A stretch of DNA of 64,000 bases. Origin: Janthinobacterium sp. GTDB taxonomy: Bacteria; Pseudomonadota; Gammaproteobacteria; Burkholderiales; Burkholderiaceae_D. The notes under the pieces are model-generated. The model was not told where the DNA came from. It did no database searches and saw nothing but the letters and a program-made list of their open reading frames with translations. Positions 1-14,046 of the stretch are shown one piece after another. Position numbers and translations under genes: made by a program. The stretch lies in NCBI GenBank assembly GCA_003133225.1, contig PKWL01000026.1:1-64000 (forward strand), given 5' to 3'. Positions within the stretch are counted from its first letter, which is position 1. Every line of letters starts with the position of its first letter.

Positions 1-54
1 AAGGAAATACGCGCGGGCGACCAGGAGCGCCGCTTCGCGCTCGCCTGCCATTAA
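1..54 (+). CDS. 3' end of an upstream gene (partial)
   Basis: An open frame enters the window and ends at a TAA at 52-54, giving the tail KEIRAGDQERRFALACH. The next gene starts within a few bases, so this is probably the preceding member of the same operon. Seventeen residues are too few to name a family. Confidence 0.5.
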   Translation, partial: KEIRAGDQERRFALACH

Positions 55-69
55 ATGATGGAGCCGACG

Positions 70-987
70 ATGCCGACATCGACCCTTTCCTTCCGCCAGC
101 AGCGCAACGTCGTGCCTCTGCCCTACCGCCAGGTCAGCGTGCAGCCGTACGCGGGACCGATGACCGAGGCGGCGATCAGCGCGCACCTTCTCGGTCGCGA
201 GGCTTACCGCCGCACCAACTTCATCGTGCTGCACAGAGGCAATGTTGAGGCCAGCGAACTGGCCATCGTCTCGATCGCGCGCACCGACGATGAGGCCCTG
301 TTCTCGCCGATCACAGCGGTGGAAGTGCTTGCGCTGCCCGACACCAGCGTCTTCGCCAAGGATCCGCAAACCGACTGCGCCAACCGCTCGGCGCTAGCCG
401 AGCTCGCGCACCGCTGCGGCGTCGGTGCCGATCGGACCTTGGTTGTGTGGGGCCTGTATGACCACATTAACTTCATTCATCACCCCGACCCGCTTGTGCT
501 GCGGGTGGTGGAGGTTGCACCACCTGAACCACCCAAGCTCTTCAATCTAGTCAAGCACGTCTTGAGCTATGCCGATCTTCCGCCCATTCGCGTGGAACTT
601 GAGCGGATCGAGCTGGTCGAGCTGGCGCGACAAATACCAGCCAAGGAGTATCTGGTCCCGTGCCGTTCGGGCGGGCTCGATCAGCTTGGCGCGCATGTGA
701 GTTTCCTCGACGAGCGCCCCGCGCAACGCCGCGACTGGGTACTCGTTGGTTGCGAACGGAGTCTCCAATTTCATCGTCACTATTATGGCGACGAGCCGCC
801 ACGCGTCGAAATGTGCCCGCGGCAAATTGCCGGTCAGCGTGGTCAGCCCACGCTGCTTAAATGTTGTCTTCTCGAGTTTGATATCGAGCGCGACGGTCAG
901 GTGATGGTGGTTCCGTGGGGTACCGATCTGGTGATGGTGGAGCATGCACTCCGCCAGCTTTTCAAAGAGGACAATCATGCTCGATAG
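70..987 (+). CDS. Unrecognised 305-aa protein, first full gene of the coenzyme-M-like operon
   Basis: I do not recognise this family. It is soluble, with no signal peptide or membrane segment. A His-rich stretch (YDHINFIHHPDPLVLR, about residues 138-153) and a Pro-rich EVAPPEPPKLF are the most distinctive parts. The ATG at 70 is preferred because GGAG (60-63) lies 6 bases before it; in-frame ATGs at 55 and 58 directly follow the upstream stop and have no visible ribosome binding site. Its 3' end overlaps the phosphosulfolactate synthase gene by 11 bases, so translational coupling is likely. Inference: because the pathway from sulfoacrylate plus cysteine to coenzyme M needs a decarboxylation that no other gene here explains, this protein is a candidate for that or another missing step. 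No catalytic motif proves it. Confidence 0.8.
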   Translation: MPTSTLSFRQQRNVVPLPYRQVSVQPYAGPMTEAAISAHLLGREAYRRTNFIVLHRGNVEASELAIVSIARTDDEALFSPITAVEVLALPDTSVFAKDPQTDCANRSALAELAHRCGVGADRTLVVWGLYDHINFIHHPDPLVLRVVEVAPPEPPKLFNLVKHVLSYADLPPIRVELERIELVELARQIPAKEYLVPCRSGGLDQLGAHVSFLDERPAQRRDWVLVGCERSLQFHRHYYGDEPPRVEMCPRQIAGQRGQPTLLKCCLLEFDIERDGQVMVVPWGTDLVMVEHALRQLFKEDNHAR

Positions 988-1855
988 TCATTGGGGAGAC
1001 CTGGCCGTCATTGCAAAGCTGAGCCGGGAACGCTCCGCATCCCCGCGTTCGCTCGGTCTAACGATGATCATCGACACGGGGCTTGGCGTCGCCGCCACGG
1101 CGGATATACTTGAAATTGCGGGCGACTACATCGACCTTTGGAAGCTCAGCTTTGGCACTTCGGTCTTCGTGCAGAGGGAAGTGCTCGCGCGTAAGCTTGC
1201 CCTTATCAATGCGCGCAAGATCCTTACCTGTCCCGGCGGCACGCTGTTCGAGGCCGCTATTCTCCAGCACCACTGCCGCGTCTACATGGCGCGCGCCATT
1301 GAAGCCGGTTTCACGGCAGTCGAAATATCGGACGGCACCATTGAATTGCCTGCGTTCCGGCGCCAGCGTGTCATCGACTGCGCCATCAACGCGGGCCTGG
1401 TGCCAATTACCGAGGTGGGCAAGAAGGATCCCGAAGCGCAGCCTCCCCTTGATGAGCTCGCAGAGGCGGCGTTACAAGACCTCGAGTGGGGCGCGCGCTG
1501 GGTGATCGTCGAAGGACGCGAATGCGGTAAAAGCGTAGGCGTCTACGACGACCAGGGCAAAATCGCTGCCGACTCGCTAGACACCTTCGCCCGGATTATG
1601 GGCGACCAGGTCGAACGCTTGATCTGGGAGGCACCGCTCAAGAACCAGCAAACCGCGCTCATTGAACGGTTCGGCGTGAACGTCGGTCTCGGAAACATCG
1701 AGCCCAACAGCGTGCTAGCATTGGAAGCATTGCGTCTCGGGCTCCGCTTTGAGACACTAAAGCCGATCGCCGAGGCACTGGCGCAATCGAGGCAGTGGAT
1801 ACCCGATCAGGTCGAGGGCGGGCCGACCAAGGAGGCTTTGGATGGAGGGCGCTGA
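977..1855 (+). CDS. comA: Phosphosulfolactate synthase (ComA/XcbB1-like)
   Basis: This is a TIM-barrel enzyme of the phosphosulfolactate synthase family, which adds sulfite to phosphoenolpyruvate to give (R)-phosphosulfolactate, the first step of coenzyme M synthesis in some methanogens and in Xanthobacter. Numbering from the ATG at 977 (292 aa), the family blocks are MIIDTGLG (30-37), KLSFGTS (56-62), CPGGTLFE (85-92), EISDG (116-120), EVGKKDP (146-152) and [15 protein letters not shown] (177-191). The start at 977 has AAGAGG (965-970) six bases upstream; an in-frame start at 944 would lie deeper in the previous gene and lacks this. It overlaps both neighbours (11 and 14 bases), showing one transcriptional unit. 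Bacillus YitD-like homologues make sulfolactate for spores, but the downstream lyases and PLP enzyme point to coenzyme M. Confidence 0.9.
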
Positions 1856-3380
1856 GCAAGAGTGCCGCCGCGCCGATGACATTGGGGCCGGGTCTTCGCT
1901 CGAAATTGGCGGACGACTGGCCTCACTGCCAGCGTCGGAGCTTGTCGCGCACGCCTTCGCAGAGGAACTTCGTAACCAGCGCCCCCTTAGCGAAGCGATG
2001 GGGTTCGTCGATCTCGCCTACACTCTCGCATTAGTCGAAAGTGGCAAACTGCCTCGCGCCGCGGGCCGTGCTCTCCTGGCGGCACTTCTTGAACTTCACG
2101 AGCACCCTGAGGCGCTCTCGCTCGATCCTTCGCACGGCGACCTGTATACCAACCGAGAAGCCTGGTTGATGAGCCGTACGCCGGCTGCGGGCTGGCTTGG
2201 AGCCGGACGGGCCCGGCGCGAAGCCATCACCACCGCCTTTCATCTAGTCGTTCGCGAGCGTGTACTGGGGCTGGTGCACGCACTCATTTCGATGGCCGAC
2301 GAGATCGTGACACAGGCCGATGCTCATCGGGAGGCGCTCGTTGCGGACTATACCTATCTCCAGGCCGGGCAACCTACGAGTTTCGGACATTATCTTCTGG
2401 GCTTTGCCTATGCTTTACTGCGCGACATCGAACGTGCCCGCGCCTTTTACGGGCGTTTCGACCGCAGCCCGGCCGGTTGTGGGAGTACCAACGGTTCTCG
2501 CCTCGCACCCGATCGACGACGCATTGCCGAGTTGCTCGGCTTCGCTGACATCGTGCCGCATGCGCGCGACGCGATGTGGCAGGCAGACGGCCCCATTGAG
2601 GGACTCTCGCTCGTCGTCGCGGCGCTGGTTAATCTCGATCGGCTGGCAGAGGATCTGATGGTTTTCGCCACCGTTGAGTTTGGCGTAATTGAACTCGGCG
2701 ACGATCAGGCCCGCGCCAGCAAGATCATGCCCCAGAAAAAAAACCCGTTTGCTCTCGCGTATGTACGTTCCGCGGCAAATCAGGCGATCGGGATCCAGGC
2801 CGCGATGGCAGCTTCCGGACGAACGCCCAGCGGTCAAATGGATAACCGTCTGCTCGCCTACGGCGAGTTGCCTCGCGCCCTTACGCTCGCGGCTGGCGCC
2901 GCCGAGCTGATGCGAGCGGTGCTAGGCGGCCTATCTCTTTCGCGAGACAACGCCGCCCGCACTTTGGAGCGCAGCTTTGTGCTCGCCACCGACCTTGCCG
3001 AGACTCTGGTACTCGAGGCTAGCCTCGACTATCGCGCCGCGCACCGCGTCGTGGGCCGGTTGTCTCGCACACTGCACGAAGAGCGCCGTGTTCCAGCATC
3101 GCTTACGCCGGCTGATGTAGAACGGGCGGCCGAGGCTGTGCTTGGTCAAATTGTAAATATCGATGCTGCAACTCTCGCCACCGCACTCGATCCGCGCGCC
3201 GCCGTCGCTGCACGACGCGCTCCGGGGGGGGCGGCCGCGGCCCCGATGTCTGAGATGATTGCCGAATGTCGCGCCCAGCTCGCCATCGGCGCCGCATGGC
3301 TGCAAGTTGTCACGGAGCACGCCGAAAGTGCCCGCGCGAGTCTGCTTGCCGCAACGCAGCAGACTGTGAAGGAACCGTGA
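1842..3380 (+). CDS. Aspartase/fumarase-superfamily lyase, argininosuccinate-lyase-like (XcbC1/XcbD1 candidate)
   Basis: This 512-aa protein has the argininosuccinate-lyase layout of three conserved regions. Region 3 reads [11 protein letters not shown] (292-302), where canonical lyases have GSSxMPQKKNP: the first Ser (the usual catalytic base) is kept and the second is Lys. Region 2 reads TYLQAGQP (171-178) where THLQxAQP is usual, so the conserved His is Tyr. Region 1 is also divergent (HGDLYTNRE, 98-106). These changes argue against argininosuccinate cleavage. In Xanthobacter, a superfamily member (XcbC1) removes phosphate from phosphosulfolactate to make sulfoacrylate; by order this gene matches XcbC1, but XcbD1 is possible. 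The start has AAGGAGG at 1829-1835, and the gene overlaps comA by 14 bases and the next gene by one base. Confidence 0.85.
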
Positions 3381-4735
3381 TGGCCGCCACAATGATCGAC
3401 TGTGTCGTCTTTGGGAGCCTTTGGAGCAAGCGCTCGGTGAAAGAATTATTCGATGAGGTTCCCCGTACCAAGACCTGGCTGGAGATTCTCGCCGTGCTCG
3501 CTGAGGTTGAAGCCGAATATGATCTCATCCCTGCGGATGCTGCGCTTCTGATCGCCAAAGTCTGCCGCACGCTTACCGTTGACGACGAATTCCTCGAAGA
3601 GGTCCGCTGCGGCCGGGAGGAAAGCGGCCATTCCACCCAGGGCTTGATCCGCGCCATACAGAGGCGCTTGACGCCGAACTCTGCGCGGTGGGTCTACTCA
3701 GGGGCGACCGTCCAAGACGTCACCGATACCTGGTTGATGATCGCGCTGCGCGAGGCGCGCCGCATCCTCGAGCGCGATCTTGAAGAGGTGGATTGCGCGC
3801 TAGCGATGCTCGCCCGGCGCCACCGCGACACGGTTATGGCCGGGCGCACCCACGGCCAGCACGGCTTGCCGATCACCTTCGGGTTTAAGGTTGCCGGCTG
3901 GCTCGCCGAAGTTCGTCGTCATCGGCGGCGCTTGCGCGAGATCGCGGCTCGAATGGACGTCGCGCAGCTCTCGGGAGGGGTTGGTAGCCTTTCCTCGCTG
4001 GGGCCGCGTGGTCTCGACCTGCAGCGGCAATTCGCCGAACGGCTGGGGCTGCGGGCGCCCGTTGTCTCGTGGAACACTAGCCGCGATGTGTTCGCCGAAT
4101 GGTGCACATTGCTAACGCTAGTTACCGGCACTGCTGATCGGATTGGACATGAGGTCTACAATTTGCAGCGCACGGAGATCGGCGAGGTCAAAGAGGGCTT
4201 CGTCGCCGGCACGATCGGCAGCATTACGATGCCCCACAAGCGCAACCCGGAGATCGGCGAGCACCTAGGCACGCTGTCGCGCATCGTGCGCCATCTCGGT
4301 GCAGCGATGCTCGAGGGGCTGGTCCACGATCATGAGCGGGATGGACGTTCCTGGAAGACCGAGTGGCATGCGATACCCGAGGTGACCATGCTAGCTAGCC
4401 GCGTCATCGAGCTGCTTAAGGGGCTCGCGTCGAGCCTCGAGGTCGATGAAGTTCGAATGCGCGCCAATCTTGAAGCGAGCGGCGGTTTCGCGCTCTCCGA
4501 GGCGATCATGCTCGCACTCGCCCCGCAGTTGGGGCGCGATGCGGCGCATCGACTGCTCTACGAAACATCGATTGTGGCGCGGGAGCGCGATCAGACCTTG
4601 ATCGAGGCGGTGCGCGCAAACGCGGTGATCAGCGCGGCGTTCGGCGAAGGTGAGCTCGAACTGCTTCTCGACTACACTTTTCACACGGGACTGTGCGGCG
4701 CCATGGTTGATCGTGTGCTTGCAGAAGAACCATGA
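3380..4735 (+). CDS. Aspartase/fumarase-superfamily lyase, adenylosuccinate-lyase/CMLE-like (XcbD1/XcbC1 candidate)
   Basis: This second superfamily member is 451 aa and resembles adenylosuccinate lyase and 3-carboxy-cis,cis-muconate cycloisomerase. It has YSGATVQDVTDT (106-117; most relatives have Ser where Val is), GRTHGQHGLPITFG (155-168, with the conserved His) and GSITMPHKRNPEIGE (280-294). In that last block the second Ser of the SSxMP signature is Ile. Purine or muconate enzymes are not expected beside a phosphosulfolactate synthase. The likely role is the second lyase step of coenzyme M synthesis, such as joining cysteine to sulfoacrylate (inference from the Xanthobacter model). The ATG at 3380 shares a base with the upstream stop; an in-frame start at 3266 would overlap by 115 bases and encodes an unrelated Arg-rich leader. 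Confidence 0.85.
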   Translation: MAATMIDCVVFGSLWSKRSVKELFDEVPRTKTWLEILAVLAEVEAEYDLIPADAALLIAKVCRTLTVDDEFLEEVRCGREESGHSTQGLIRAIQRRLTPNSARWVYSGATVQDVTDTWLMIALREARRILERDLEEVDCALAMLARRHRDTVMAGRTHGQHGLPITFGFKVAGWLAEVRRHRRRLREIAARMDVAQLSGGVGSLSSLGPRGLDLQRQFAERLGLRAPVVSWNTSRDVFAEWCTLLTLVTGTADRIGHEVYNLQRTEIGEVKEGFVAGTIGSITMPHKRNPEIGEHLGTLSRIVRHLGAAMLEGLVHDHERDGRSWKTEWHAIPEVTMLASRVIELLKGLASSLEVDEVRMRANLEASGGFALSEAIMLALAPQLGRDAAHRLLYETSIVARERDQTLIEAVRANAVISAAFGEGELELLLDYTFHTGLCGAMVDRVLAEEP

Positions 4736-5739
4736 GTACACAAGCTTTCACCCGTCTTGACGGGTTCCCCCGCCAGCGCCTCGGCCTGCTGCCCACGCCA
4801 CTGACTCCAGCCCCACGGCTCGCACGGGCAATAGGGCTGCCTGATCTGTGGATCAAACACGACGAGCTGATCGGCTTCGGCTTTGGCGGCAATAAGGTGC
4901 GTGGCCTTGAGTTTCTCCTCGCCGACGCCAAGGCGAAGAAGGCCACGGTGCTCGTGACAGGCGCCGGCGCACAGTCGAACCATGTGCGCGCGACAGCGGC
5001 AACCGCCGCCCATGGCGGGCTCGAATCGATCGCCGTATATTGGGGTGACGAGCCCCCCGTTGCGCAAGGCAATTTGCTTTTGACGCGCATGCTTGGCGGG
5101 CAGACGCGCTTTACGAAAAACTATGATCGCATGCATGTCGACCTTGCAATCGCCGAAGTCGCCGCCGAGCTAAGGACGGCCGGACACCACCCTTACACCA
5201 TCCCGCGCGGCGGAGCCTGCGCGCTCGGTGTGCTTGGGCATGTGCTCGCGGCGCGGGAGCTCTATCTGCAGTGCGAGTCGCTTGGGCTTCGACCGAGTGC
5301 GATTGTGCTCGCAGTCGGCTCGGGAACGACGTTCGCGGGATGGCTGTTGGGTTCGGCACTCCTCGGTGCCGCTTGGCAGGTGGAGGGAGTGACCGTTAGT
5401 CGTCCCCCGTCCGAAGTGCGCGTGCGTGTCGCTGCGCTCGCCGCAGAAGCCGCACAGCTACTTGGCATGCCTGCGTTGCTGAGCGAGGCCGAGGTCGTGG
5501 TGCATGAAGGCTTCATCGGCGAAGGCTATGGAGTACCGACGGCAGATGGAGAGGCCGCCATCAGGAGCGCGGCGCGATTGCAGGGAGTGTTCTTCGATCC
5601 GACCTACACTGGAAAAGCCTTCGCGGGCCTCACCGCGCTCGCCGCAGCCGGTCGCTTCGCTGGTCGCGGTCCCGTTATCTTCCTCCACACGGGCGGCGAG
5701 CCAGCACTTTTCGCCGATCCGCCGCACGGGCGCAAATGA
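4732..5739 (+). CDS. PLP-dependent D-cysteine desulfhydrase/ACC deaminase-family enzyme (XcbE1-like)
   Basis: This is a fold-type II PLP enzyme of 335 aa. The cofactor Lys is K55 in FGGNKVRGLEF (51-61). The substrate loop is GAQSNHVRATAA (79-90), and the C-terminus has the family's FLHTGGEPALF block. Relatives cleave D-cysteine, L-cysteate or ACC. Here it is the last gene of the operon, joined to the lyase by an ATGA overlap (4732-4735). In the bacterial coenzyme M model a PLP enzyme releases the thiol from a cysteine conjugate by beta-elimination, giving coenzyme M, pyruvate and ammonia; that is the proposed role. A stand-alone D-cysteine or cysteate lyase is the main alternative. Confidence 0.88.
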   Translation: MSTQAFTRLDGFPRQRLGLLPTPLTPAPRLARAIGLPDLWIKHDELIGFGFGGNKVRGLEFLLADAKAKKATVLVTGAGAQSNHVRATAATAAHGGLESIAVYWGDEPPVAQGNLLLTRMLGGQTRFTKNYDRMHVDLAIAEVAAELRTAGHHPYTIPRGGACALGVLGHVLAARELYLQCESLGLRPSAIVLAVGSGTTFAGWLLGSALLGAAWQVEGVTVSRPPSEVRVRVAALAAEAAQLLGMPALLSEAEVVVHEGFIGEGYGVPTADGEAAIRSAARLQGVFFDPTYTGKAFAGLTALAAAGRFAGRGPVIFLHTGGEPALFADPPHGRK

Positions 5740-5906: not shown

Positions 5907-5982
5907 CTCTGGCGCGGTCGAAGACCTACACAAACGGCGCCATTGTTGATCAGCCTGACGCTCGCCGTCATGCTAAACAGGC
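5907..5982 (+). repeat. Imperfect direct repeat, copy A
   Basis: About 76 bases beginning CTCTGGCGCGGTCGAAGACC and ending GCTAAACAGGC recur at 6701-6774 in the same orientation with scattered mismatches and a short gap. The best shared core is CCATTGTTGATCAGCCTG. No coding function is visible. It lies in decayed mobile DNA. Confidence 0.7.
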
Positions 5983-6207: not shown

Positions 6208-6544
6208 TCATGGACCGGTCCTTAGGGCGCTCAAGCACCTACGCTGGCAACCGCGTGCGATCATTTGTTCAAACAATACATGGCATCGCCCTTATGGTCG
6301 CTGGCGATCACGTAGCGCTGCTTTGTGATCTTACGGAAGGTGGTGCCGGGCTTGGGCGGCCTCGTGCTGAGCACGGTGCTCTGCGCACCGTGCGCGCGAC
6401 CTTGAAATAGCGCACGACGCGCTGGTCCAGGATGATCTGATTTCGGCGGCGCCACGCACCCGGGTACTCGCGCAAGGAGAAATCGTTGCCGCCAAAAGCG
6501 GGTTTTGTGGAGCGGAAAAAAATAAGAAATCAGGCGATTCTCAT
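6208..6544. other. Decayed sequence, no intact gene
   Basis: No convincing gene. A minus-strand frame at 6261-6455 reads protein-like near its end (FRKITKQRYVIASDHKGDAMY) but I cannot place it. The last 50 bases (about 6495-6544) resemble 8102-8143, the stretch just after the broken integrase, suggesting this was also the tail of an integrase abutting the tRNA relic. Confidence 0.4.
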
Positions 6545-6580
6545 TGGAGCGGGTGAAGGGAATCGAACCCTCGTCGTAAG
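6545..6580 (-). tRNA. tRNA-Gly 3' fragment, att-site relic 1 (not functional)
   Basis: The 36 bases are identical to 8144-8179. On the minus strand they read from the anticodon-stem 3' side through the T-arm (GGTTCGATTCC) and acceptor stem to CCA. The anticodon arm and 5' half are missing, so it is not a working tRNA. Such 3' tRNA ends are typical att sites left by tyrosine-recombinase islands. Confidence 0.65.
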
Positions 6581-6700
6581 ATTGGGCGGGTCAACATGAT
6601 TTTGTGGCGCGGATTTTTGGGACATGGTCTGGCACTTCCTAAGGTTAAGGCCCCTGCTGCAAGCCAGCCTCAATGCGCCAGCCAACGCGCCGCTCGACGA
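6581..6700. other. Decayed sequence between att relic and repeat B
   Basis: No gene or motif is recognisable in this short stretch. Confidence 0.4.
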
Positions 6701-6774
6701 CTCTAACGCGGTTGAAGACCGTACAACGGCTCCATTGTTGATCAGCCTGTGGCGCGCCGCCATGCTAAACAGGC
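6701..6774 (+). repeat. Imperfect direct repeat, copy B
   Basis: This is the partner of 5907-5982, starting CTCTAACGCGGTTGAAGACC and ending GCTAAACAGGC. It lies about 120 bases upstream of mazE. Confidence 0.7.
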
Positions 6775-6830
6775 GCCGAAACTGCTGACGAACAATCCTG
6801 ACGTTCAGAATGGTTCGGTAGGTCGTTAAT

Positions 6831-6871
6831 ATCCTACTTGCGTAAAACATAAAATCCTACTAAAATAGGAT
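6831..6871 (+). promoter_or_regulatory. Operator-like palindrome upstream of mazEF
   Basis: A perfect 6-bp-arm palindrome, ATCCTA-CTAAAA-TAGGAT, spans 6854-6871. A further half-site ATCCTAC lies at 6831-6837, and a similar GTCCTACC overlaps the mazE start. Antitoxins of this type bind such repeats to repress their own operon, so this is the likely autoregulatory site. The spacing of only 26 bases to the mazE ATG fits. Confidence 0.6.
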
Positions 6872-6896
6872 AACTTAAGTCCATTGGAGTCCTACC

Positions 6897-7142
6897 ATGT
6901 TGCAAACATTAAGGCGGGCTGGCGGATCGCTGGTAATGACGGTGCCGAAAGTTTTCATTGAGCAGAACCATTTGCAAGAGGGCTCGCAAGTCGATCTGTT
7001 TGTAGCCGGAGCGCAAATGACCGTGAACGTGCAACACCGGCCTCGCTACAAGCTGGAAGATTTAATGGCTGAAATGCCAACAAAACTTCCGCGCGTTGAG
7101 GGCTGGGATGAAATGGCGTCTGTTGGCAAGGAAGCGACTTAA
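6897..7142 (+). CDS. mazE: MazE-like antitoxin (AbrB-fold DNA-binding)
   Basis: This 81-aa protein has an N-terminal swapped-hairpin AbrB/MazE domain (LRRAGGSLVMTVPKVFIEQN, residues 5-24). An acidic, flexible C-terminus (LEDLMAEMPTKLPRVEGW) would wrap the toxin. GGAG at 6886-6889 serves the ATG at 6897. The stop shares one base with the mazF start (TAATG), the usual coupling of such pairs. It lies between two tRNA-Gly relics with integrase debris, so it probably arrived on a small island and may now stabilise the locus. Confidence 0.85.
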   Translation: MLQTLRRAGGSLVMTVPKVFIEQNHLQEGSQVDLFVAGAQMTVNVQHRPRYKLEDLMAEMPTKLPRVEGWDEMASVGKEAT

Positions 7143-7489
7143 TGGTTTACGTACCAGACCGTGGAGACATCGTGCATTTAAACTTCGATCCAGCTTCCGG
7201 GCAAGAAATGAAGGGCCCGCATTTTGGGCTGGTTGTGAGTCCGAAACTGTTCAATAGCCGTGGCTTAGCGATGATTTGCCCTATCTCCCAAGGGCAGGCT
7301 GCGACGGCTAGAACGTATGGCACTGTCGTTACGTTGATGGGTTGTGGAACCGAGACACAAGGAGCCGTGCATTGCCACCAGTTGAAAGGACTTGACTGGC
7401 GTATTCGTAAAGCAAAGTTCAAAGAAAGGGTGCCTCAAGAAATCAATGATGAGGTCGCGGCAAGACTTGATGCAATCCTTTTTGGGTAA
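7142..7489 (+). CDS. mazF: MazF/PemK-family endoribonuclease toxin
   Basis: This 115-aa protein of the MazF/PemK/CcdB fold cleaves mRNA at short sequences. It starts with VPDRGDIVHLNFDPASGQEMKGPHFGLV; the DRGDI and GxExxxxRP-like regions are typical, here with GQEMKGPHFGLVVS. A later block, CPISQG (46-51), and the C-terminal VPQEINDEVAARLDAIL also fit. It is complete and overlaps mazE by one base. No frameshift or lost residue is obvious, so it is probably active. Confidence 0.87.
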   Translation: MVYVPDRGDIVHLNFDPASGQEMKGPHFGLVVSPKLFNSRGLAMICPISQGQAATARTYGTVVTLMGCGTETQGAVHCHQLKGLDWRIRKAKFKERVPQEINDEVAARLDAILFG

Positions 7490-7559
7490 CCGTTCGAAGT
7501 TAAATGCACAATGCGGTCAACGTCATGAGGACAAAAGATCGATCTGCAAACGGAGCTGA

Positions 7560-8107
7560 AAAACGGGTTGTGCCGCTGTGTCATGACCACGCCTGATGGC
7601 GCCTTGCGGCTGGCGCCACCGACCTGCCTTGTTGTCGCCGGCGTGCCGGCAAACCACGCGCGTGGCCAGCGACCCGGCCACGCCCTCAACATGACCGAAC
7701 ACGACATCGTCGACGGCCATTTGTTTGTCACACAGGCAAAGACCAAGCAGCCCCTTTACGTATTGCAATTATTGGCGAGTTGGCGAACTGATTGGACGGA
7801 TTAGCGCACGTAAGAAGGAGTACAAAATTGTGACGGCGGCATTATTGGTCAACTCGCAGGGCAAGCGACTTACCGGCCCGGTTCTGCGTAACCGCTTCGA
7901 CGAGAGAGCAGCTTCAGCGAAAACGTGCCCGCTGATGGCTGCGGAAAATCGAGGCGCTCCATTTCTATGACCTGCGCACCAAGGCTGCCTATGACACTTC
8001 TGACATGCGCGGCGAACAGGCTGCGAGCGATTTATTGGCCATGGCAGCGTGAAACGACGCAGCGCCATTACCTGGGCCGGGGGCAGATCGTCGGCCCTAC
8101 AAAGTAG
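7560..8107 (+). pseudogene. Broken tyrosine recombinase (phage/island integrase), C-terminal part
   Basis: Fragments in shifting + frames rebuild an integrase catalytic domain: GQRPGHALNMTEHDIVDGHL and AKTKQPL (about 7660-7755), GELIGRIS and ALLVNSQGKRLTGPVLRNRF (about 7780-7905), FYDLRTKAAYDTSDMRGEQA (about 7963-8020, the HxLR box with Tyr for His), and TTQRHYLGRGQIVGPTK (8057-8107) carrying the Tyr nucleophile context. At least three frameshifts and a stop at 8050-8052 disable it. It ends 36 bases before a tRNA-Gly 3' fragment, the normal place for such an integrase. Confidence 0.75.
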
Positions 8108-8143
8108 TTTTGTGAAGCAGAAAAGAAACCGGGCATTCGTCAG

Positions 8144-8191
8144 TGGAGCGGGTGAAGGGAATCGAACCCTCGTCGTAAGCTTGGGAAGCTT
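8144..8191 (-). tRNA. tRNA-Gly(CCC) 3' fragment, att-site relic 2 (not functional)
   Basis: On the minus strand the sequence contains the anticodon loop TTCCCAA, the T-arm GGTTCGATTCC and an acceptor 3' strand ending CCCGCTCCA. That is tRNA-Gly with anticodon CCC. Upstream of the anticodon arm the match stops, so the D-arm and 5' acceptor strand are absent. The first 36 bases (8144-8179) are identical to 6545-6580. Confidence 0.7.
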
Positions 8192-8329: not shown

Positions 8330-9145
8330 TCAGGTGAACTTGCGCTCAATTTTGACCATCGCGTGGTCGAACAGCGCGCCAATAAGACCGATTACCACCA
8401 TCGCGCTGATCGAAAAGACAGCTTGCAAGTTCTGCTGCCCGACGAGGATCAGGAACCCCAATCCTGTCAAAGCGCCGGGACCTGCAATAATTTCTGCACC
8501 AATAAGCGCCAGCCACCCATTCGCAACACCGATCCTCGCACCAGCCACAACGAGTGGCATAGAGGCCGGCAGGCCGACACGAAACAACACCGTGCCCGGC
8601 CCCGCTCCCAGCATTCGCGCGGCTTTGATGAGCCCGTCATCCACCAACCGTATGGCCCGATAGGAGTTCATCAGGATCGGCGGCAGCGCTGCTGTGAAGA
8701 TAACGAAAGTCTGCGACCCGAAGCTTGCACCGAACCATAACAGCGCAAACGGGGCCCACGCAATTGGAGGAACATTACGGAACGCATTGAAAAGTGGAGT
8801 CAGCAGATTGTCGGCAAGGCGGAACTGCCCCATGAGTAACCCCAACGGGACCCCGATCGCCAAAGCCAATAAAAAACCTGAAAGGAAGCGCAAAACGCTC
8901 CAGCAGGCATGGACCCACAGCGTGCCGTCGCCAATCGTGTTACCGCTCTGGGCTAGCCATACCAATTTCTGTGCGACTTGCCACGGTGAGGGCAAGAAAT
9001 CAGATGACACTCCTGTAGCTACGACGCAAACCCACCAAATGCCGAGCCAAATTACGAGCCAGAATGCGACGCCAACATGGCCTAATGCAGCCGACCGAAA
9101 CCGGGAAGTCATGCCCGGGCCAGTCGCTACAGGCACGCTACTCAC
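8330..9145 (-). CDS. ABC importer permease, SsuC/TauC family (second permease)
   Basis: This 271-aa inner-membrane protein has about six hydrophobic segments. The cytoplasmic EAA loop reads ARMLGAGPGTVLFRVGLPAS, which docks the ATPase. The family imports sulfonates, taurine, nitrate, aromatic acids or pyrimidine precursors, so the substrate cannot be read from this gene. The start is GTG at 9145, overlapping the preceding permease gene by 8 bases. It is the last gene of a four-gene transporter operon. Two distinct permeases suggest a heterodimeric channel, whereas SsuC and TauC are single permeases. Confidence 0.88.
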   Translation of the reverse strand: MSSVPVATGPGMTSRFRSAALGHVGVAFWLVIWLGIWWVCVVATGVSSDFLPSPWQVAQKLVWLAQSGNTIGDGTLWVHACWSVLRFLSGFLLALAIGVPLGLLMGQFRLADNLLTPLFNAFRNVPPIAWAPFALLWFGASFGSQTFVIFTAALPPILMNSYRAIRLVDDGLIKAARMLGAGPGTVLFRVGLPASMPLVVAGARIGVANGWLALIGAEIIAGPGALTGLGFLILVGQQNLQAVFSISAMVVIGLIGALFDHAMVKIERKFT

Positions 9146-9902
9146 CGGCGCACCAGTCGAAGATACGCTTCTCAGCTTGTTGGAAGAGCAAGTCGATCAC
9201 GAACCCCGTCAGCGCCACCGCAACGATGCCGGCGGCCATGATGTCAGACTCAAAATTGCGATAACCGCTCATGATGATGAAGCCGAACCCCGCTGTCGCC
9301 ACGACAAGTTCGGCGGCAACGACGGTGGCCCAGGCAGTGCCCAGTGCAATTCGCATGCCGTTCGCGATCAGCGGCAGGCCGAATGGAACGGCGACGCGAA
9401 ACAGCAGATCGGTCCGGCTTGCACCTAAGGTGCGCGCGGCGCTGACAAGACTTGGAGGCACTTGCTTGATGGCCACGTAAGAATTGATGAGGCACGGCGT
9501 TATGGTCGACACAAACACAACAAATGCCTTTCCCTGCAGGCCGATTCCGAACCACAGTATGGCCAGCGGAATCCAAGCGGGCGGCGGTATCGGTCGCAAC
9601 ATGCTAATCAGCGGCCCGAACATGACGTCGAGTGGCCGCAGCCATGCCATCGCCACTCCCAGTGACACGCCCACCAGTACCGCAGCAAGGTAACCAGTGA
9701 GCACGACCGAAAGGCTAGCTTCTAGATGAGCCACAAGTGACGAGCCCAAATAGCCGCCGCTTAACCGCCGCGTGGCGTCGACAACGGCCATCGGGGATGG
9801 CAGGATGAACGGACTGACCAATTCGAGTGTGCTGACCACCCACCAGGCGGTCAACACCGCCGCGACGCCCGCCGAGCCGACCAGAAATCTTGTAACTTTC
9901 AA
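9138..9902 (-). CDS. ABC importer permease, SsuC/TauC family (first permease)
   Basis: This 254-aa membrane protein has an N-terminal segment followed by a periplasmic stretch (SPFILPSPMAVVDATRR) and the EAA loop ARTLGASRTDLLFRVAVPFG. The start is a TTG at 9902, supported by a strong GGGAGG five bases upstream. It lies 10 bases after the ATPase gene. It is clearly related to, but different from, the neighbouring permease, so the pair probably arose by duplication. Confidence 0.88.
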   Translation of the reverse strand: MKVTRFLVGSAGVAAVLTAWWVVSTLELVSPFILPSPMAVVDATRRLSGGYLGSSLVAHLEASLSVVLTGYLAAVLVGVSLGVAMAWLRPLDVMFGPLISMLRPIPPPAWIPLAILWFGIGLQGKAFVVFVSTITPCLINSYVAIKQVPPSLVSAARTLGASRTDLLFRVAVPFGLPLIANGMRIALGTAWATVVAAELVVATAGFGFIIMSGYRNFESDIMAAGIVAVALTGFVIDLLFQQAEKRIFDWCAGE

Positions 9903-9912
9903 GCGCGCCTCC

Positions 9913-10806
9913 CTATTCGATCACGATCTCGTCACGGATCAGGTCCCAGACCCTCGCGCGAAGATCCTGAAAATCGCCGCTACGCAGCACTTGGTCGAGC
10001 GGTGTTTCGCGCCAATGCTTGGCGCCGGTGAATTTTCCCACATCGATCACCTCCTTGATTCGTCCTGGTCGGCGGCTCATGACGACAATACGGTCGGCGA
10101 GAAATACCGCCTCTTCGACGCTGTGCGTCACAAAAATCACTGTCGGCTTGTACTCCAACCACAGGCGCACAAGTTCCTCCTGCATGACCGTACGGTTCTG
10201 CGCGTCGAGGGCCGCAAATGGTTCGTCCATCAAAAGCAACCGCGGTCTGAGTACTAGGCTGCGTGCAATTGCCACCCGTTGCTGCATTCCGCCTGACAAT
10301 TGTCGGGGAAAATGGTTCTCGAAACCACTCAATCCGATGATCGGAAGGTAGTAATCGATGCGGCGCCGGCGTTCGACGGCCGGCACGCCATTCAAAATCA
10401 AGCCAAATTCGATGTTTTCAACCACGCTCTTCCAAGGAAAAAGCGAGAAGTTCTGGAAAACAATGGCCTTGTCCGGGCCCGGGCCACGAACCGACTCTTG
10501 GCCGAGAAAGACTCTGCCAGAGGTCGGAACGGTTAAGCCACCCGCCATCGATAAAATAGTGCTTTTGCCACAGCCTGAAGGTCCAACAATAACCAGAAAC
10601 TCACTTGCAGCAATATTTAGCGTGAAGTCGTCGACGGCCAATGTAGGACGGTTGCGCTTGGTCGCAGCAAACTCCAGAGAGACGTGTTCGAATTGGACGT
10701 CGTTATCGCGCTCGGGTGATGCGACTGCCCCGTTTATTCGCTCGACGTGCTTCGGGATTGGAGTCATATTTTCAAGACTCATTGTTGTTCTAGACGCGCG
10801 GGTCAT
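9913..10806 (-). CDS. ABC importer ATPase, SsuB/TauB/NrtD family
   Basis: This 297-aa nucleotide-binding subunit has Walker A GPSGCGKST (75-83), the Q-loop in VFQNFSLFPW (116-125), the signature LSGGMQQR (170-177), Walker B LLLMDEP (190-196) and a switch His in FVTHSVEEA. The LFPW after the Q-loop is typical of the nitrate/sulfonate/bicarbonate class. An extra ~35 residues precede the domain. The ATG at 10806 overlaps the binding-protein stop (ATGA); an in-frame ATG at 10782 is an alternative but has no better ribosome site. Confidence 0.9.
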   Translation of the reverse strand: MTRASRTTMSLENMTPIPKHVERINGAVASPERDNDVQFEHVSLEFAATKRNRPTLAVDDFTLNIAASEFLVIVGPSGCGKSTILSMAGGLTVPTSGRVFLGQESVRGPGPDKAIVFQNFSLFPWKSVVENIEFGLILNGVPAVERRRRIDYYLPIIGLSGFENHFPRQLSGGMQQRVAIARSLVLRPRLLLMDEPFAALDAQNRTVMQEELVRLWLEYKPTVIFVTHSVEEAVFLADRIVVMSRRPGRIKEVIDVGKFTGAKHWRETPLDQVLRSGDFQDLRARVWDLIRDEIVIE

Positions 10807-11819
10807 CCTGGCTGTGCCGCTTTTTTTAGGAATGAAACGTCCACGACCGAGCGGAAGTCTGGAACTTTTTTCATGCGGCCATTCCGAATGAAAAACCGTG
10901 CGATTTCCTCATACATGTCAACGATGAAAGACTTGGACCCATCGGAAGTGGTCATGTACTTGATTTGATCCTTTAACGTTTCGGCCGTCATTACGTAGCG
11001 GACGGTTTCTTTTAGCGTCGCCTCGGTCGCAGTTTGGCCAGTGAACGCCATGAATTTTCGATACATTGCTGTGGTTCTAGCGGCATCCTGCCTGACCCAA
11101 TTTACTGCGTCGCCGTTCGCTTGCAACCATTTGACAATGAGGTCCGGGCGCTTGGCGGCGAATTCCTTGGTAGTCACCCAAACGGTGGCGATTTTGCTGC
11201 CTGCCTGGCGTCCATCGCACAGAACGCGGTTGCCACGTTCCAGCAGGGCGGAAGTAAACGGTGGCCAAGCCTGTATCAGATCCCCTTGGCCGACCGCAAA
11301 CGCGGACAGCGAGGAAGTCTGGTCACTGGGGATAATCGAAACATCATTCGTGGCGATCCCGAACTTGCGCAAGCAAGCCTCGGTCATGTAGTGCCCAGTG
11401 GAAAGCGTGGTCACGAATATCTTGGCCCCCTTTAGCGACGCCGGATTAGTAAGCGCCGCAGCAACGTAATTCGGGCGCCCTATCAACATGTGTTGCGCGG
11501 CTTCATTGTATATGATGCCGATTGTTATCATGCCTAGCGACGTTGAGCCGATCACCGCCGGCGGCGCTCCAAGAAAGGCAATGTCCCACTCCTTGGCTGC
11601 GGCGGCTTGGACGATGGGTGCTCCACTGGGAAAGAAGTGCAGGTCCGGGTCGATTCCATGTTTCGTGAACAGGCCCAGCTCTTTTGCCGCAAACTGAATA
11701 AAGCCAGGGTAATTGGTCTGCGTGTAGGTACGAACTTTTTCGAGTGCAAGTGCATTGTGGACGGATAGCATCGCAATGAGCATGGTTGCGAAGGAAAGAA
11801 ATCGAATAACGTGCCTCAT
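10803..11819 (-). CDS. Periplasmic substrate-binding protein (SsuA/NMT1-like) of the ABC importer
   Basis: This 338-aa protein has a cleavable signal peptide (residues 1 to about 25, ending NALA-LE). The mature part follows the NMT1/SsuA plan: TNYPGFIQFAAKELGLFTKHG near the N-terminus, FPSGAPIVQAAAAKEWDIAFLGAPPAV for the first lobe, and a long second lobe. AAGGAAACC before the ATG is the ribosome site. It is the first transporter gene and heads the minus-strand run. The ligand could be a sulfonate, a carboxylate or nitrate; the adjoining acyl-CoA synthetase favours an organic acid or sulfo-acid. Confidence 0.87.
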   Translation of the reverse strand: MRHVIRFLSFATMLIAMLSVHNALALEKVRTYTQTNYPGFIQFAAKELGLFTKHGIDPDLHFFPSGAPIVQAAAAKEWDIAFLGAPPAVIGSTSLGMITIGIIYNEAAQHMLIGRPNYVAAALTNPASLKGAKIFVTTLSTGHYMTEACLRKFGIATNDVSIIPSDQTSSLSAFAVGQGDLIQAWPPFTSALLERGNRVLCDGRQAGSKIATVWVTTKEFAAKRPDLIVKWLQANGDAVNWVRQDAARTTAMYRKFMAFTGQTATEATLKETVRYVMTAETLKDQIKYMTTSDGSKSFIVDMYEEIARFFIRNGRMKKVPDFRSVVDVSFLKKAAQPG

Positions 11820-11970: not shown

Positions 11971-14046
11971 TCACGATTCAAACTTTTCTACACGCATGCG
12001 CGCATCCACGATGACAAAGCAATTCCCGTTCGCAATGACCGGGTTGAGATCGAGCTCGCGGCACCAAGGCGCGCGGGCAGTTGATGCCGACACCTTCGCC
12101 ATCAATTCACTCATGCCCTTGCGGTCAACGGGTTCGGTGCCACGCAGTCCGTCTAACAGGCTGCGACCTCGCAGCTCACCAATTGCGCGCTCGGCTTCGC
12201 TGGCGCTAATGGGGGACAGACGCATCGAAATGTCGTTGAGGGCTTCGGTCCAAATGCCACCGAGCCCACAGACCAGCACGGGACCAAAAGTGGGATCACG
12301 CACAGTACCTAGCATCAGCTCCACGCCACGCTCGGCCTGTCGCTGAAGCAACGCTGGTCCAGGACCTAACATTCGCCAAAAGTCGGTGAAAGCCTCGCGC
12401 ACAGATTCTGTGTTCGCAAGGGCGAGCCGGACGGCTCCCGCTTCCGTCTTGTGAACAAGACCCGGGCGGACTGCCTTGAGCACCACCGGGAAACCAGTCG
12501 CCACAGCTGCTTCTACTGCAGCCTCGGCATCCGCGACGAGCCGCCATGGCATCAGCGGCAAGCCCCACGAGGCCAGCAGCGGAAATAGCTGTTCAGGCGC
12601 CAGCCACCCCCCGGGGGGAACGTTTCCCGGGGGCGGCAGCGCGGCTCCCACGTCGGCGGGCGGTACATCAGGCGCAACGGCCTGGCAGTGAGCGAGTACC
12701 CGCGCCGTGCGCGCTGCCCAATCGTGACATGGGATCCCGGCAGCCAGCAGCTTTTTCCGCAGCGGTTCGCCTTCGCCCGGCGCGGCCCAGCACACGTGCA
12801 CCGGTTTCGCAATTCCTGCGGCTCTTGCAGCCTGTGACCGGGCGATCACCGCGTCAATGACGCCTTCATCCAGCGCCGATCTCTGCAACAGTACTGGGAC
12901 GACCGCATCGACCTCATCGCTTGCCAGCAATGCGCGCATGGTCTCCCCGTACATCGTCGGGAAACGTTGCCATGCGGTGGTCACGTCAATGGGATTGGCC
13001 GCACACCCGTGCGCAGGCAAATTGCAAGCGATTGCGTCGCGAAGCCCGGGAGAGAGCATCGGTACCTCAAGTCCTTCTGAATCGCACAAATCGGCAAGCT
13101 CTACTCCGGTTCCACCCGAGTTGCTGATGATCGCGACGCGGGCGCCGCGCAATGGCGGTTGTCGATCTAGCGCGGCTGCGACATCAAACAGCGTCAGTCC
13201 ATCATCAACCAATATCGCGCCGGCTTGGCGCAAGACAGCGCGCGCGACAGCGAAGTCTTGCGCCAAGGCCGCAGTGTGGCTCGATGCCGCCCGCTGGCCG
13301 GCGCGACTACGGCCGGTCTTGAGAATTACAACCGGCTTATGTGGCGTTACTGCGCGCAACGCAGCAACTAGTCCAGGTCCGTCGGCCAACGATTCGAGCA
13401 CCAGCGCGATCACACGCGTGTGCGGATCCTGGCCGAAAAAGCGGACGGCATCGACTTCATTGATGTCCGCCTTGTTGCCGGCGGAAAGGACCTTCGCGAA
13501 ACCGATGGCTCCTTCCTTCGATCGCGAGAAGGCTGCCATCCCATAAGAGCCACTCTGTGTGAAGAGCGAAACCCCGCCGGCCGCGGGCAAGCCCATCGCC
13601 ATGGAGGCGTTCAGCCGGCTATGCGTATCGATAAGCCCGAAACAGTTGGGCCCGATGAGGCGAAGATTGTTGGCGCGCGCTACCCGAGCGAGGTCGGCCT
13701 CGTACGCGGCGCCCACCCTTCCGGTCTCTGCAAATCCGCCACTCAACACGATTACCGCCGGCACCTTGGCAACTGCGCAATCTTCAACGACCTGCAGGAC
13801 GGCGCCGGCCGGTGTCACGACAACGGCAAGATCGATCAATCCGGGCACAGCAGCTAGGCTCGCATAGACCGCCTGACCTAGCACTTCCGTGGCGCTCGGA
13901 TGAATCGGCACCACTTCTGCGCAATGGTTGGCTAACAGGTTGTCGAGCAGTAGCCGCCCAATCTTGCCGGCTACTGCCGATGCGCCGAAAAGTGCGATGC
14001 GCCTCGGCGCGAATGCTGCTTTTCCCCAATTGTTCACATCGACCAT
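11971..14046 (-). CDS. ADP-forming acyl-CoA synthetase, fused alpha-beta (Acd family)
   Basis: This 691-aa cytoplasmic enzyme makes acyl-CoA plus ADP and Pi from an acid, CoA and ATP through a phosphohistidine. The N-terminal CoA-binding domain begins RRIALFGASAVAGKIG. A ligase domain has GPNCFGL (132-138), and the phosphohistidine is H257 in AASSHTAALA. The C-terminal ATP-grasp domain (about 475-690) has FPVVLKAVRPGLVHKTEAG. Substrates in this family range from acetate to pimelate, ferulate and sulfoacetate, so specificity is open. It sits upstream of the importer on the same strand, suggesting that the imported acid is activated here. Confidence 0.88.
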   Translation of the reverse strand: MVDVNNWGKAAFAPRRIALFGASAVAGKIGRLLLDNLLANHCAEVVPIHPSATEVLGQAVYASLAAVPGLIDLAVVVTPAGAVLQVVEDCAVAKVPAVIVLSGGFAETGRVGAAYEADLARVARANNLRLIGPNCFGLIDTHSRLNASMAMGLPAAGGVSLFTQSGSYGMAAFSRSKEGAIGFAKVLSAGNKADINEVDAVRFFGQDPHTRVIALVLESLADGPGLVAALRAVTPHKPVVILKTGRSRAGQRAASSHTAALAQDFAVARAVLRQAGAILVDDGLTLFDVAAALDRQPPLRGARVAIISNSGGTGVELADLCDSEGLEVPMLSPGLRDAIACNLPAHGCAANPIDVTTAWQRFPTMYGETMRALLASDEVDAVVPVLLQRSALDEGVIDAVIARSQAARAAGIAKPVHVCWAAPGEGEPLRKKLLAAGIPCHDWAARTARVLAHCQAVAPDVPPADVGAALPPPGNVPPGGWLAPEQLFPLLASWGLPLMPWRLVADAEAAVEAAVATGFPVVLKAVRPGLVHKTEAGAVRLALANTESVREAFTDFWRMLGPGPALLQRQAERGVELMLGTVRDPTFGPVLVCGLGGIWTEALNDISMRLSPISASEAERAIGELRGRSLLDGLRGTEPVDRKGMSELMAKVSASTARAPWCRELDLNPVIANGNCFVIVDARMRVEKFES

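What the first reader, a model, noticed from the sequence alone, without database searches (positions are those of the whole stretch)
70..5739. Complete coenzyme-M-type biosynthetic operon in a betaproteobacterium
Seen: five overlapping genes encode an unknown protein, phosphosulfolactate synthase, two aspartase/fumarase-superfamily enzymes and a D-cysteine-desulfhydrase-like enzyme. Established: bacterial coenzyme M synthesis in Xanthobacter uses this enzyme set (XcbB1, C1, D1, E1) and serves epoxide/alkene metabolism. Inference: this organism makes coenzyme M or a close sulfonated thiol. Such operons are known from few bacteria, and here no alkene-metabolism gene is visible in the window.
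Basis: partly seen in the sequence, partly recalled or inferred. Interest (0 to 1): 0.85.

Follow-up and report, generated by a model that had tools for sequence, protein, structure and literature searches.

The report
Coenzyme M genes for epoxide use
The five genes are a genuine bacterial coenzyme M operon, and the same genome assembly holds the epoxide-degrading enzymes that use this cofactor on another contig, so it is most likely a new example of a known pathway split by an assembly gap.

Summary
Five overlapping genes at 55-5739 pass the NCBIfam cut-offs for XcbA, phosphosulfolactate synthase, XcbC, XcbD and XcbE. XcbC and XcbD form clades apart from ArgH and PurB rows. No alkene gene was seen because the window starts at contig base 1. 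Contig C109 of the same assembly carries a MEDS regulator, epoxyalkane:CoM transferase (76% to Xanthobacter), 2-ketopropyl-CoM carboxylase and R-hydroxypropyl-CoM dehydrogenase. The window's first 54 bases encode the end of CoA-transferase B, and contig C21 starts with a 52/54-identical copy. A roughly 2.5-kb segment is probably duplicated and broke the assembly (inferred). The window also holds the cluster's acyl-CoA ligase and a taurine/sulfonate-type transporter. The only di-iron oxygenase found is a phenol hydroxylase. The own genome is the only one of 392 sampled in its family with XcbA. Verdict: new member of a known kind. The most novel lead lies outside the window: Chloroflexota xcb clusters beside corrinoid methyltransferase genes, with no epoxide transferase found.

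The parts
1..54 (+). 3' end of CoA-transferase subunit B, directly upstream of XcbA
   Evidence: translates to KEIRAGDQERRFALACH*; L006 CoA-transferase B ends HRKELRPADQERRFALAGQ*; 52/54 nt identical to the head of contig C21
55..987 (+). XcbA family protein (DUF7714); exact reaction not assigned
   Evidence: NF052538 473 bits, cut-off 150; 50% to JS614 RS00560; 63% to the best ORF of the Xanthobacter locus
977..1855 (+). XcbB, (2R)-phosphosulfolactate synthase (ComA type)
   Evidence: TIGR03849 301 bits, cut-off 280; PDB 9cm1, 24fo and 1qwg score above 1u83; start choice
1842..3380 (+). XcbC, ArgH-like lyase, phosphate elimination to sulfoacrylate
   Evidence: NF052535 676 bits, cut-off 575; XcbC clade apart from ArgH rows
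3380..4735 (+). XcbD, PurB-like lyase, cysteine addition
   Evidence: NF052536 628 bits, cut-off 600 (longer start); XcbD clade apart from PurB rows; start choice
4732..5739 (+). XcbE, PLP enzyme of the D-cysteine desulfhydrase/CuyA family, last step to CoM
   Evidence: NF052537 468 bits, cut-off 450; CuyA model 281/450 and D-cysteine desulfhydrase 241/429 are below cut-off
6515..6586 (.). copy 1 of a 72-nt direct repeat; reverse complement looks like a tRNA 3' end (own reading)
   Evidence: no whole tRNA called in the window
6897..7489 (+). MazE/PemK toxin-antitoxin pair between the repeats
   Evidence: PF04014 26.3/24.7 bits, PF02452 71.2/23.1 bits
8114..8185 (.). copy 2 of the 72-nt direct repeat, 83% identical
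8330..9145 (-). ABC transporter permease, taurine/sulfonate type
   Evidence: PF00528; SaoP/TauC models below cut-off; 73% to L100 gene
9138..9902 (-). ABC transporter permease, taurine/sulfonate type
   Evidence: TauC model 179 bits, cut-off 342; 75% to L100 gene
9913..10806 (-). ABC transporter ATPase, taurine/sulfonate type
   Evidence: SaoA and taurine models best, below cut-off; 77% to L100 gene
10803..11819 (-). substrate-binding protein, SsuA/TauA type
   Evidence: SsuA_fam 106 bits, cut-off 163.5; best PDB match is taurine-binding 6ssy, 64 bits; 76% to L100 gene
11971..14046 (-). acyl-CoA ligase (ADP-forming type) of the xcb/xec cluster
   Evidence: 77% to the cluster ligase of L009 and 81% over 400 residues to that of L002, against 41% to JS614

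Best explanation
The five genes make coenzyme M by the bacterial (Xcb) route. PEP plus sulfite gives phosphosulfolactate (XcbB). Phosphate is eliminated to sulfoacrylate (XcbC). Cysteine adds to the double bond (XcbD). A PLP enzyme releases CoM (XcbE). XcbA is a dedicated partner of unknown step. The CoM is used by the epoxide pathway encoded in the same assembly: EaCoMT adds CoM to an epoxide, the R-hydroxypropyl-CoM dehydrogenase oxidises the alcohol, and 2-ketopropyl-CoM carboxylase frees CoM and gives acetoacetate. CoA-transferase, acyl-CoA ligase and an acylating aldehyde dehydrogenase feed the products into central metabolism. A sulfonate-type importer belongs to the same cluster. Shown: the genes, their family membership and their spread over contigs C109, C55 and C21. 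Inferred: that the three contigs are one cluster joined through a duplicated xecE-CoA-transferase segment, and all reactions.
For: All five proteins pass curated cut-offs. Identity to Xanthobacter proteins is 51-58% for XcbB-E. The lyase tree separates XcbC and XcbD from ArgH and PurB rows. EaCoMT is on C109 at 76% to Xanthobacter with the HxC motif conserved. 2-KPCC matches PDB 1mo9 at 817 bits and keeps CPHNAC and FLNPTH. R-HPCDH matches 2cfc at 338 bits. L002 and L012 have the unbroken order xecA-xecC-xecD-xecE-coatA-coatB-xcbABCDE; L044 has it from within xecA on. C55 starts with the end of coatB and C109 stops 9 bases into a gene after xecD. Both C109 ends share 22 nt in opposite orientation, found nowhere else in the assembly with up to 2 mismatches. 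The C55 and C21 heads share 52 of 54 nt and then part (10 of the next 30). EaCoMT is found at E 1e-40 in 32 of 46 other genomes with XcbA.
Against: XecE and CoA-transferase A were not found in the assembly: the best-scoring matches are a 38% SDR and a 29% protein; CoA-transferase B was not searched by itself. So the join is inferred. There is no direct end overlap of 15 bases or more between C109 and C55. C109 is only 6,064 bases and could be mis-binned; the MAG has 2.69% contamination. No dedicated alkene monooxygenase was found (one search has no working control). XcbB, XcbD and XcbE pass their cut-offs by only 21, 28 and 18 bits. No compound or activity was measured.
Confidence: 0.9

Rival explanations
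1. The pathway serves epoxide detoxification or co-metabolism, with epoxides made by a broad oxygenase such as the phenol hydroxylase on C87, and not growth on alkenes. This is a rival on physiology, not on gene function.
For: The only SDIMO hydroxylase found is a phenol hydroxylase: alpha subunit 806 bits to PDB 2inn, 26-28% to EtnC/XamoA. In the 46 relatives' stretches (at most 10 kb a side, many shorter) no ORF has an SDIMO subunit as its best match at E 1e-10. Methylohalobius crimeensis has a like cluster and no alkene monooxygenase detected (PMC11507031: abstract start in the listing, passages).
Against: 2-KPCC, R-HPCDH, CoA-transferase and acyl-CoA ligase make a catabolic route to central metabolites, more than detoxification needs. 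The MAG is incomplete and the oxygenase may lie in a gap.
Confidence: 0.45
2. The operon makes CoM for another use, such as methyl transfer or sulfonate metabolism, and C109 is a contaminant contig.
For: C109 is small. Chloroflexota relatives pair xcb with corrinoid methyltransferase genes, with no EaCoMT found. The 4-mer distance of C109 to the rest of the window (0.203) is slightly above the range of 6-kb window chunks (maximum 0.196).
Against: The xcb segment itself is further off (0.247). The end of coatB at the C55 head, the 9 bases after xecD at the C109 tail and the shared C21 head fit one duplicated segment of this cluster. C55 also carries the cluster's own acyl-CoA ligase and transporter.
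Confidence: 0.07
3. The lyases and the PLP enzyme are ordinary ArgH, PurB and D-cysteine desulfhydrase paralogues next to a ComA homologue.
For: Superfamily-level matches to argH (254 bits for XcbC) and purB (263 bits for XcbD) exist.
Against: argH (cut-off 279.5), purB (326.2) and desulfhydrase (429) models all stay below cut-off, while the Xcb models pass. The tree puts XcbC (96/95) and XcbD (100/99) in their own clades.
Confidence: 0.02

Closest known systems
Xanthobacter autotrophicus Py2 pXAUT01 xec-xcb cluster (CP000782)
   Same: EaCoMT 76%, 2-KPCC 68%, R-HPCDH 66%, XcbB-E 51-58%; xecA, xecC, xecD, xecE then xcb order; an excisionase-type regulator upstream of xecA, 36% to the C109 one
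   Different: Xanthobacter has a di-iron monooxygenase gene set upstream in the same stretch and no CoA-transferase listed between xecE and xcb (the gene table is incomplete); here CoA-transferase B precedes xcbA and no alkene monooxygenase was found
Nocardioides JS614 / Mycolicibacterium etn-xcb clusters
   Same: JS614: XcbA-E, EaCoMT, CoA-transferase pair, acyl-CoA ligase, aldehyde dehydrogenase. Mycolicibacterium: a sulfonate transporter (ssuABC) about 2.7 kb from the CoM genes is reported (PMC8727900, passages)
   Different: JS614 Xcb proteins are only 34-50% identical, the gene order differs, and its cluster carries a monooxygenase
Methylohalobius crimeensis ethylene-responsive cluster
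   Same: etnE, CoA-transferase pair, CoM genes, MEDS regulator, no alkene monooxygenase detected (PMC11507031: abstract start, passages)
   Different: methanotroph; its sulfoacetaldehyde dehydrogenase lies in the one cluster, while here the SauS-like gene is on another contig, C21
Burkholderiales/Rhodocyclaceae MAG clusters L002, L009, L012, L044
   Same: nearest relatives by EaCoMT (82-93%) with XcbA 74-80%; L009 also has the ligase and the same four transporter genes
   Different: L002 and L012 are unbroken, L044 from within xecA on; here the cluster is split over contigs, with ligase and transporter inverted and starting 2.6 kb past xcbE

Membership tests
Bacterial (Xcb) CoM biosynthesis operon | ComA-type phosphosulfolactate synthase | tested here: met
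   TIGR03849 301 bits, cut-off 280; PDB 1qwg 161 bits
Bacterial (Xcb) CoM biosynthesis operon | XcbC and XcbD, not ArgH/PurB | tested here: met
   exception models pass; own clades
Bacterial (Xcb) CoM biosynthesis operon | XcbE PLP enzyme | tested here: met
   NF052537 468, cut-off 450
Bacterial (Xcb) CoM biosynthesis operon | XcbA (DUF7714) in the operon | tested here: met
   NF052538 473, cut-off 150
Bacterial (Xcb) CoM biosynthesis operon | CoM made by the cells or purified enzymes | not testable with these tools
   needs LC-MS or enzyme assay
Epoxyalkane:CoM (Xec) pathway | EaCoMT with HxC motif in the genome | tested here: met
   C109, 76%; HVC at 218-220 as in Xanthobacter; its role as zinc ligand is recalled
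Epoxyalkane:CoM (Xec) pathway | 2-KPCC with CxxxxC and FxxxxH | tested here: met
   1mo9 817 bits; CPHNAC and FLNPTH; the role of these motifs is recalled
Epoxyalkane:CoM (Xec) pathway | R- and S-hydroxypropyl-CoM dehydrogenases | tested here: inconclusive
   R form on C109; S form not found in the assembly, only a 9-base gene start after xecD
Epoxyalkane:CoM (Xec) pathway | alkene monooxygenase | tested here: inconclusive
   PF02332 finds only the phenol hydroxylase pair; PF02461 none, but its control rang nowhere
ArgH / PurB / D-cysteine desulfhydrase | passes the family equivalog cut-off | tested here: not met
   254/279.5, 263/326.2, 241/429

The most novel reading that the evidence does not exclude
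This concerns relatives found here, not the window itself. The same Xcb CoM pathway has a second use in bacteria: in Chloroflexota MAGs it serves as a methyl carrier. Beside the xcb genes lie MtaA-like (methylcobamide:CoM methyltransferase-like) proteins and a RACo-type activator (L019, L020, L021, L030: 4 of 5 loci), and a corrinoid protein and an MtrH/MtgA-like methyltransferase (L019, L020, L021: 3 of 5; the MtrH-like gene sits between XcbB and XcbC in L019 and L021). EaCoMT was found in none of the 5 genomes at E 1e-40. That would be a bacterial methyl-CoM branch without methanogenesis.
Probability: 0.45. Interest if true: 0.82.

Novelty: new member of a known kind. Interest (0 to 1): 0.35.

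Why it matters
The operon is most likely not an orphan: the epoxide enzymes that use its product are in the same assembly, and a probably duplicated segment hid the link. The trait was found in no other sampled genome of its family, which points to recent gain (inference). It also ties a sulfonate-type importer to the cluster in two genomes. The comparison exposed Chloroflexota xcb clusters in which no epoxide transferase was found and where CoM may carry methyl groups; if true, that would change what bacterial CoM is thought to be for.

Tried and rejected
ArgH/PurB/desulfhydrase reading: rejected by cut-offs and tree. Limits of that tree: the two PurB-type rows do not group, long branches meet, and 7 rows have unlike letter make-up; the outgroups are E. 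coli ArgH and PurB, two rows annotated argH and one PurB-like Chloroflexota ORF. It used the window, Xanthobacter, JS614, one Methylocystis plasmid and 8 of the 46 loci, chosen for spread.

Direct end overlap of C109 with C55: none of 15 bases or more. The shared ends showed instead as two inverted 22-nt copies on C109 and as like heads of C55 and C21.

Naming the organism: no 16S found in the assembly (the control rang in 9 of 14 genomes). Megablast of 24 kb to plasmids gave only short pieces of 71-77% in 6 records. Threonine synthase was searched in 21 of the 46 genomes and matched in 16. The betaproteobacterial label stays likely, not proven.

The AMO/pMMO search gave nothing, but its control rang in no genome, so it shows nothing. 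Rfam and tRNA scans of the window were empty. The key papers on the Xcb enzymes (PNAS 2022, JBC 2018) are not held and nothing of them was seen; their content is used only as quoted in PMC12068725 and PMC8727900 (passages) and as NCBIfam names. Paper searches for a CoM methyl-carrier role in Chloroflexota (20 of 45, 19 of 19 and 20 of 39 papers listed) showed no title on it. Only titles and abstract starts were seen, so this is no proof that it is unpublished. A search for Burkholderiales epoxide/CoM papers gave nothing nearer than PMC11507031 among the papers listed.
Full report
WHAT IS THERE. The window is bases 1-64000 of contig C55 (89,825 bases) of a genome of 5.74 Mb in 158 contigs, 98.4% complete and 2.7% contaminated. 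Five + strand genes at 55-5739 overlap head to tail. The best start sites are 55, 977, 1842, 3380 and 4732 (my reading). All five pass curated NCBIfam cut-offs for the XcbA family, phosphosulfolactate synthase, XcbC, XcbD and XcbE, three of them (B, D, E) by only 18-28 bits; the argH, purB, CuyA and D-cysteine desulfhydrase models stay below theirs. Identity to the Xanthobacter Py2 plasmid proteins is 51-58% for XcbB-E and 63% for XcbA against the best ORF of that locus.

A tree of 29 lyases puts the 12 XcbC and the 12 XcbD rows each on one side of a starred branch (96/95 and 100/99). The 3 ArgH rows fall apart from XcbC, and the two PurB-type rows lie outside XcbD but do not group with each other; long branches and letter make-up leave the exact place of the outgroups unsure. 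The synthase matches 9cm1, 24fo and 1qwg (161-166 bits) better than 1u83 (106 bits); that 1u83 is Bacillus YitD is recalled. So the proposed refutation fails.

WHERE THE CoM IS USED. The assembly holds one match to Xanthobacter EaCoMT, at 76% over 370 residues on C109. C109 (6,064 bases) reads: MEDS/HTH regulator, EaCoMT, 2-KPCC, R-HPCDH, contig end. 2-KPCC scores 817 bits to PDB 1mo9 and keeps CPHNAC and FLNPTH as in Xanthobacter. R-HPCDH scores 338 bits to 2cfc.

WHY THE LINK WAS HIDDEN. In the MAG loci L002 and L012 the order is xecA-xecC-xecD-xecE-coatA-coatB-xcbABCDE without a break, and L044 shows it from within xecA on. Bases 1-54 of the window translate to the C-terminus of coatB. C109 ends 9 bases into a gene after xecD. 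Its two ends carry the same 22 nt in opposite orientation, found nowhere else in the assembly with up to 2 mismatches. Contig C21 starts with the same 54-nt coatB end (52 of 54) and then parts: C55 goes on with xcbA, C21 with an aldehyde dehydrogenase. Inference: xecE-coatA-coatB (about 2.55 kb in L002) exists twice, in inverted orientation around C109, and the collapsed repeat was not binned. XecE and coatA were indeed not found in the assembly; coatB was not searched by itself. C21 carries an acylating sulfoacetaldehyde-dehydrogenase-like gene (492 bits, cut-off 600), a CoA-disulfide-reductase-like gene (406 bits, cut-off 579) and a second MEDS regulator.

MORE OF THE CLUSTER IN THE WINDOW. 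The ligase at 11971-14046 (minus strand) is 77% identical to the cluster ligase of L009 and 81% (over 400 residues) to that of L002, against 41% to JS614. Next to it lies an ABC transporter (8330-11819) whose binding protein is closest to SsuA/TauA models, below cut-off, and to the taurine-binding structure 6ssy. All four transporter genes are 73-77% identical to genes at the end of the L009 cluster (L100). A sulfonate transporter near CoM genes has been reported in Mycolicibacterium (PMC8727900, passages). Its cargo, CoM or another sulfonate, is open.

OXYGENASE. PF02332 finds one pair of hydroxylase genes, on C87. The alpha subunit is that of a phenol hydroxylase (806 bits to 2inn), 26-28% to EtnC/XamoA. 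Whether it makes the epoxide is not known. The AMO search has no working control.

MECHANISM. XcbB: PEP plus sulfite to phosphosulfolactate; XcbC: phosphate elimination to sulfoacrylate (both as told in PMC8727900, passages). XcbD: 3-sulfopropionylcysteine synthase (NCBIfam name). XcbE: final PLP step. XcbA: conserved partner without a reaction that I could find; a decarboxylation is my guess, because one carbon must be lost on the way to CoM. PMC12068725 (passages) calls the bacterial pathway completely determined in Xanthobacter; I could not read that source. Then epoxide plus CoM by EaCoMT, oxidation, and carboxylation/cleavage by 2-KPCC (established for Xanthobacter; recalled).

DISTRIBUTION. 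One scan found 46 XcbA loci among species genomes, many named as methanotrophs. EaCoMT is found at E 1e-40 in 32 of those 46 genomes and in 30 of the 46 fetched stretches (counted). In the window's own family XcbA was found in 1 of 392 sampled genomes, the window's own. This suggests recent gain. Direct repeats of 72 nt that look like a tRNA 3' end (my reading) flank a MazE/PemK pair at 6515-8185.

A SEPARATE LEAD. All 5 Chloroflexota loci (L014, L019, L020, L021, L030) lie in genomes where EaCoMT was not found at E 1e-40 (MAGs, and 9 other genomes of the 46 also gave none). L019, L020, L021 and L030 carry RACo-type and URO-D family proteins. The 6 URO-D proteins scanned with NCBIfam all match MtaA/CmuA models, all below cut-off. 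L021:7526-8638 and L020:6709-7827 have methylcobalamin:CoM methyltransferase 4ay7 as their only PDB match at E 1e-10. The three L021 URO-D proteins keep an HxC motif. L019, L020 and L021 have an MtrH-like protein (L019 and L021 scanned, below cut-off) and a DxHxxG corrinoid-type ORF (motif scan). Of the L021 and L030 Xcb proteins, XcbA and XcbD pass their models in both loci, XcbC passes in L021 (586/575) and fails in L030 (558/575), and XcbE fails in both (396 and 412 against 450). No XcbB model reached the 1e-100 limit used in that call, so XcbB rests on 49-54% BLAST identity. L020 ends after XcbC, and L014 has only XcbA and XcbC nearby.

VERDICT. Real, correctly read, and ordinary in kind: a new member of the known Xcb/Xec epoxide system. 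The novelty lies in the relatives.

Noticed in passing
L019 1162-19633, L020 405-12512, L021 1538-17003, L030 9098-20876: Chloroflexota xcb clusters with URO-D (MtaA/CmuA-like) proteins and RACo-type activators (4 of 5 loci), MtrH-like, PduO-type and corrinoid-type proteins (3 of 5), and no EaCoMT found at E 1e-40 in the 5 genomes: possible bacterial methyl-CoM chemistry.
   Followed up: partly
L003, L004, L005, L006, L008: Burkholderiales variant clusters: a dehydrogenase-E1-type gene and a second methionine-synthase-like gene (about 30% to EtnE) lie before the CoA-transferase genes, with EaCoMT divergent in four of the five stretches.
   Followed up: partly
L014 9974-12383: Anaerolineales locus with only XcbA and XcbC recognised within 10 kb, and no EaCoMT found in the genome at E 1e-40.
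   Followed up: no
L050 7908-13482: Methylocystis iwaonis plasmid pSS37A-Re-1: xcb genes with no EaCoMT-like gene recognised in the 25 kb shown; the plasmid is not among the 25 best EaCoMT matches listed of 201. The chromosome was not searched.
   Followed up: partly
L048 16034-17096: In the Xanthobacter plasmid table (which is incomplete) no xcbA gene is listed upstream of xcbB, although the DNA there looks XcbA-like; another XcbA-family gene (65% to the window's) lies at 293911-294807 of the record.
   Followed up: no
L025, L028, L029: A Nitrospira MAG and sponge-symbiont Porisulfidus MAGs carry EaCoMT plus xcb genes, lineages that I did not expect as alkene users.
   Followed up: no
window 6515-8185: 72-nt direct repeat (83%) resembling a tRNA 3' end (own reading) on both sides of a MazE/PemK pair, and a 50-nt repeat at 5933/6725: possible integration scars.
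   Followed up: partly
L002 13540-16521: Tn3-family transposase next to the xec-xcb cluster of a Rhodoferax MAG, a hint of mobility.
   Followed up: no
window 35146-63176: XrtA/PEP-CTERM exopolysaccharide genes (PrsT, chain-length determinant, amidotransferase).
   Followed up: no
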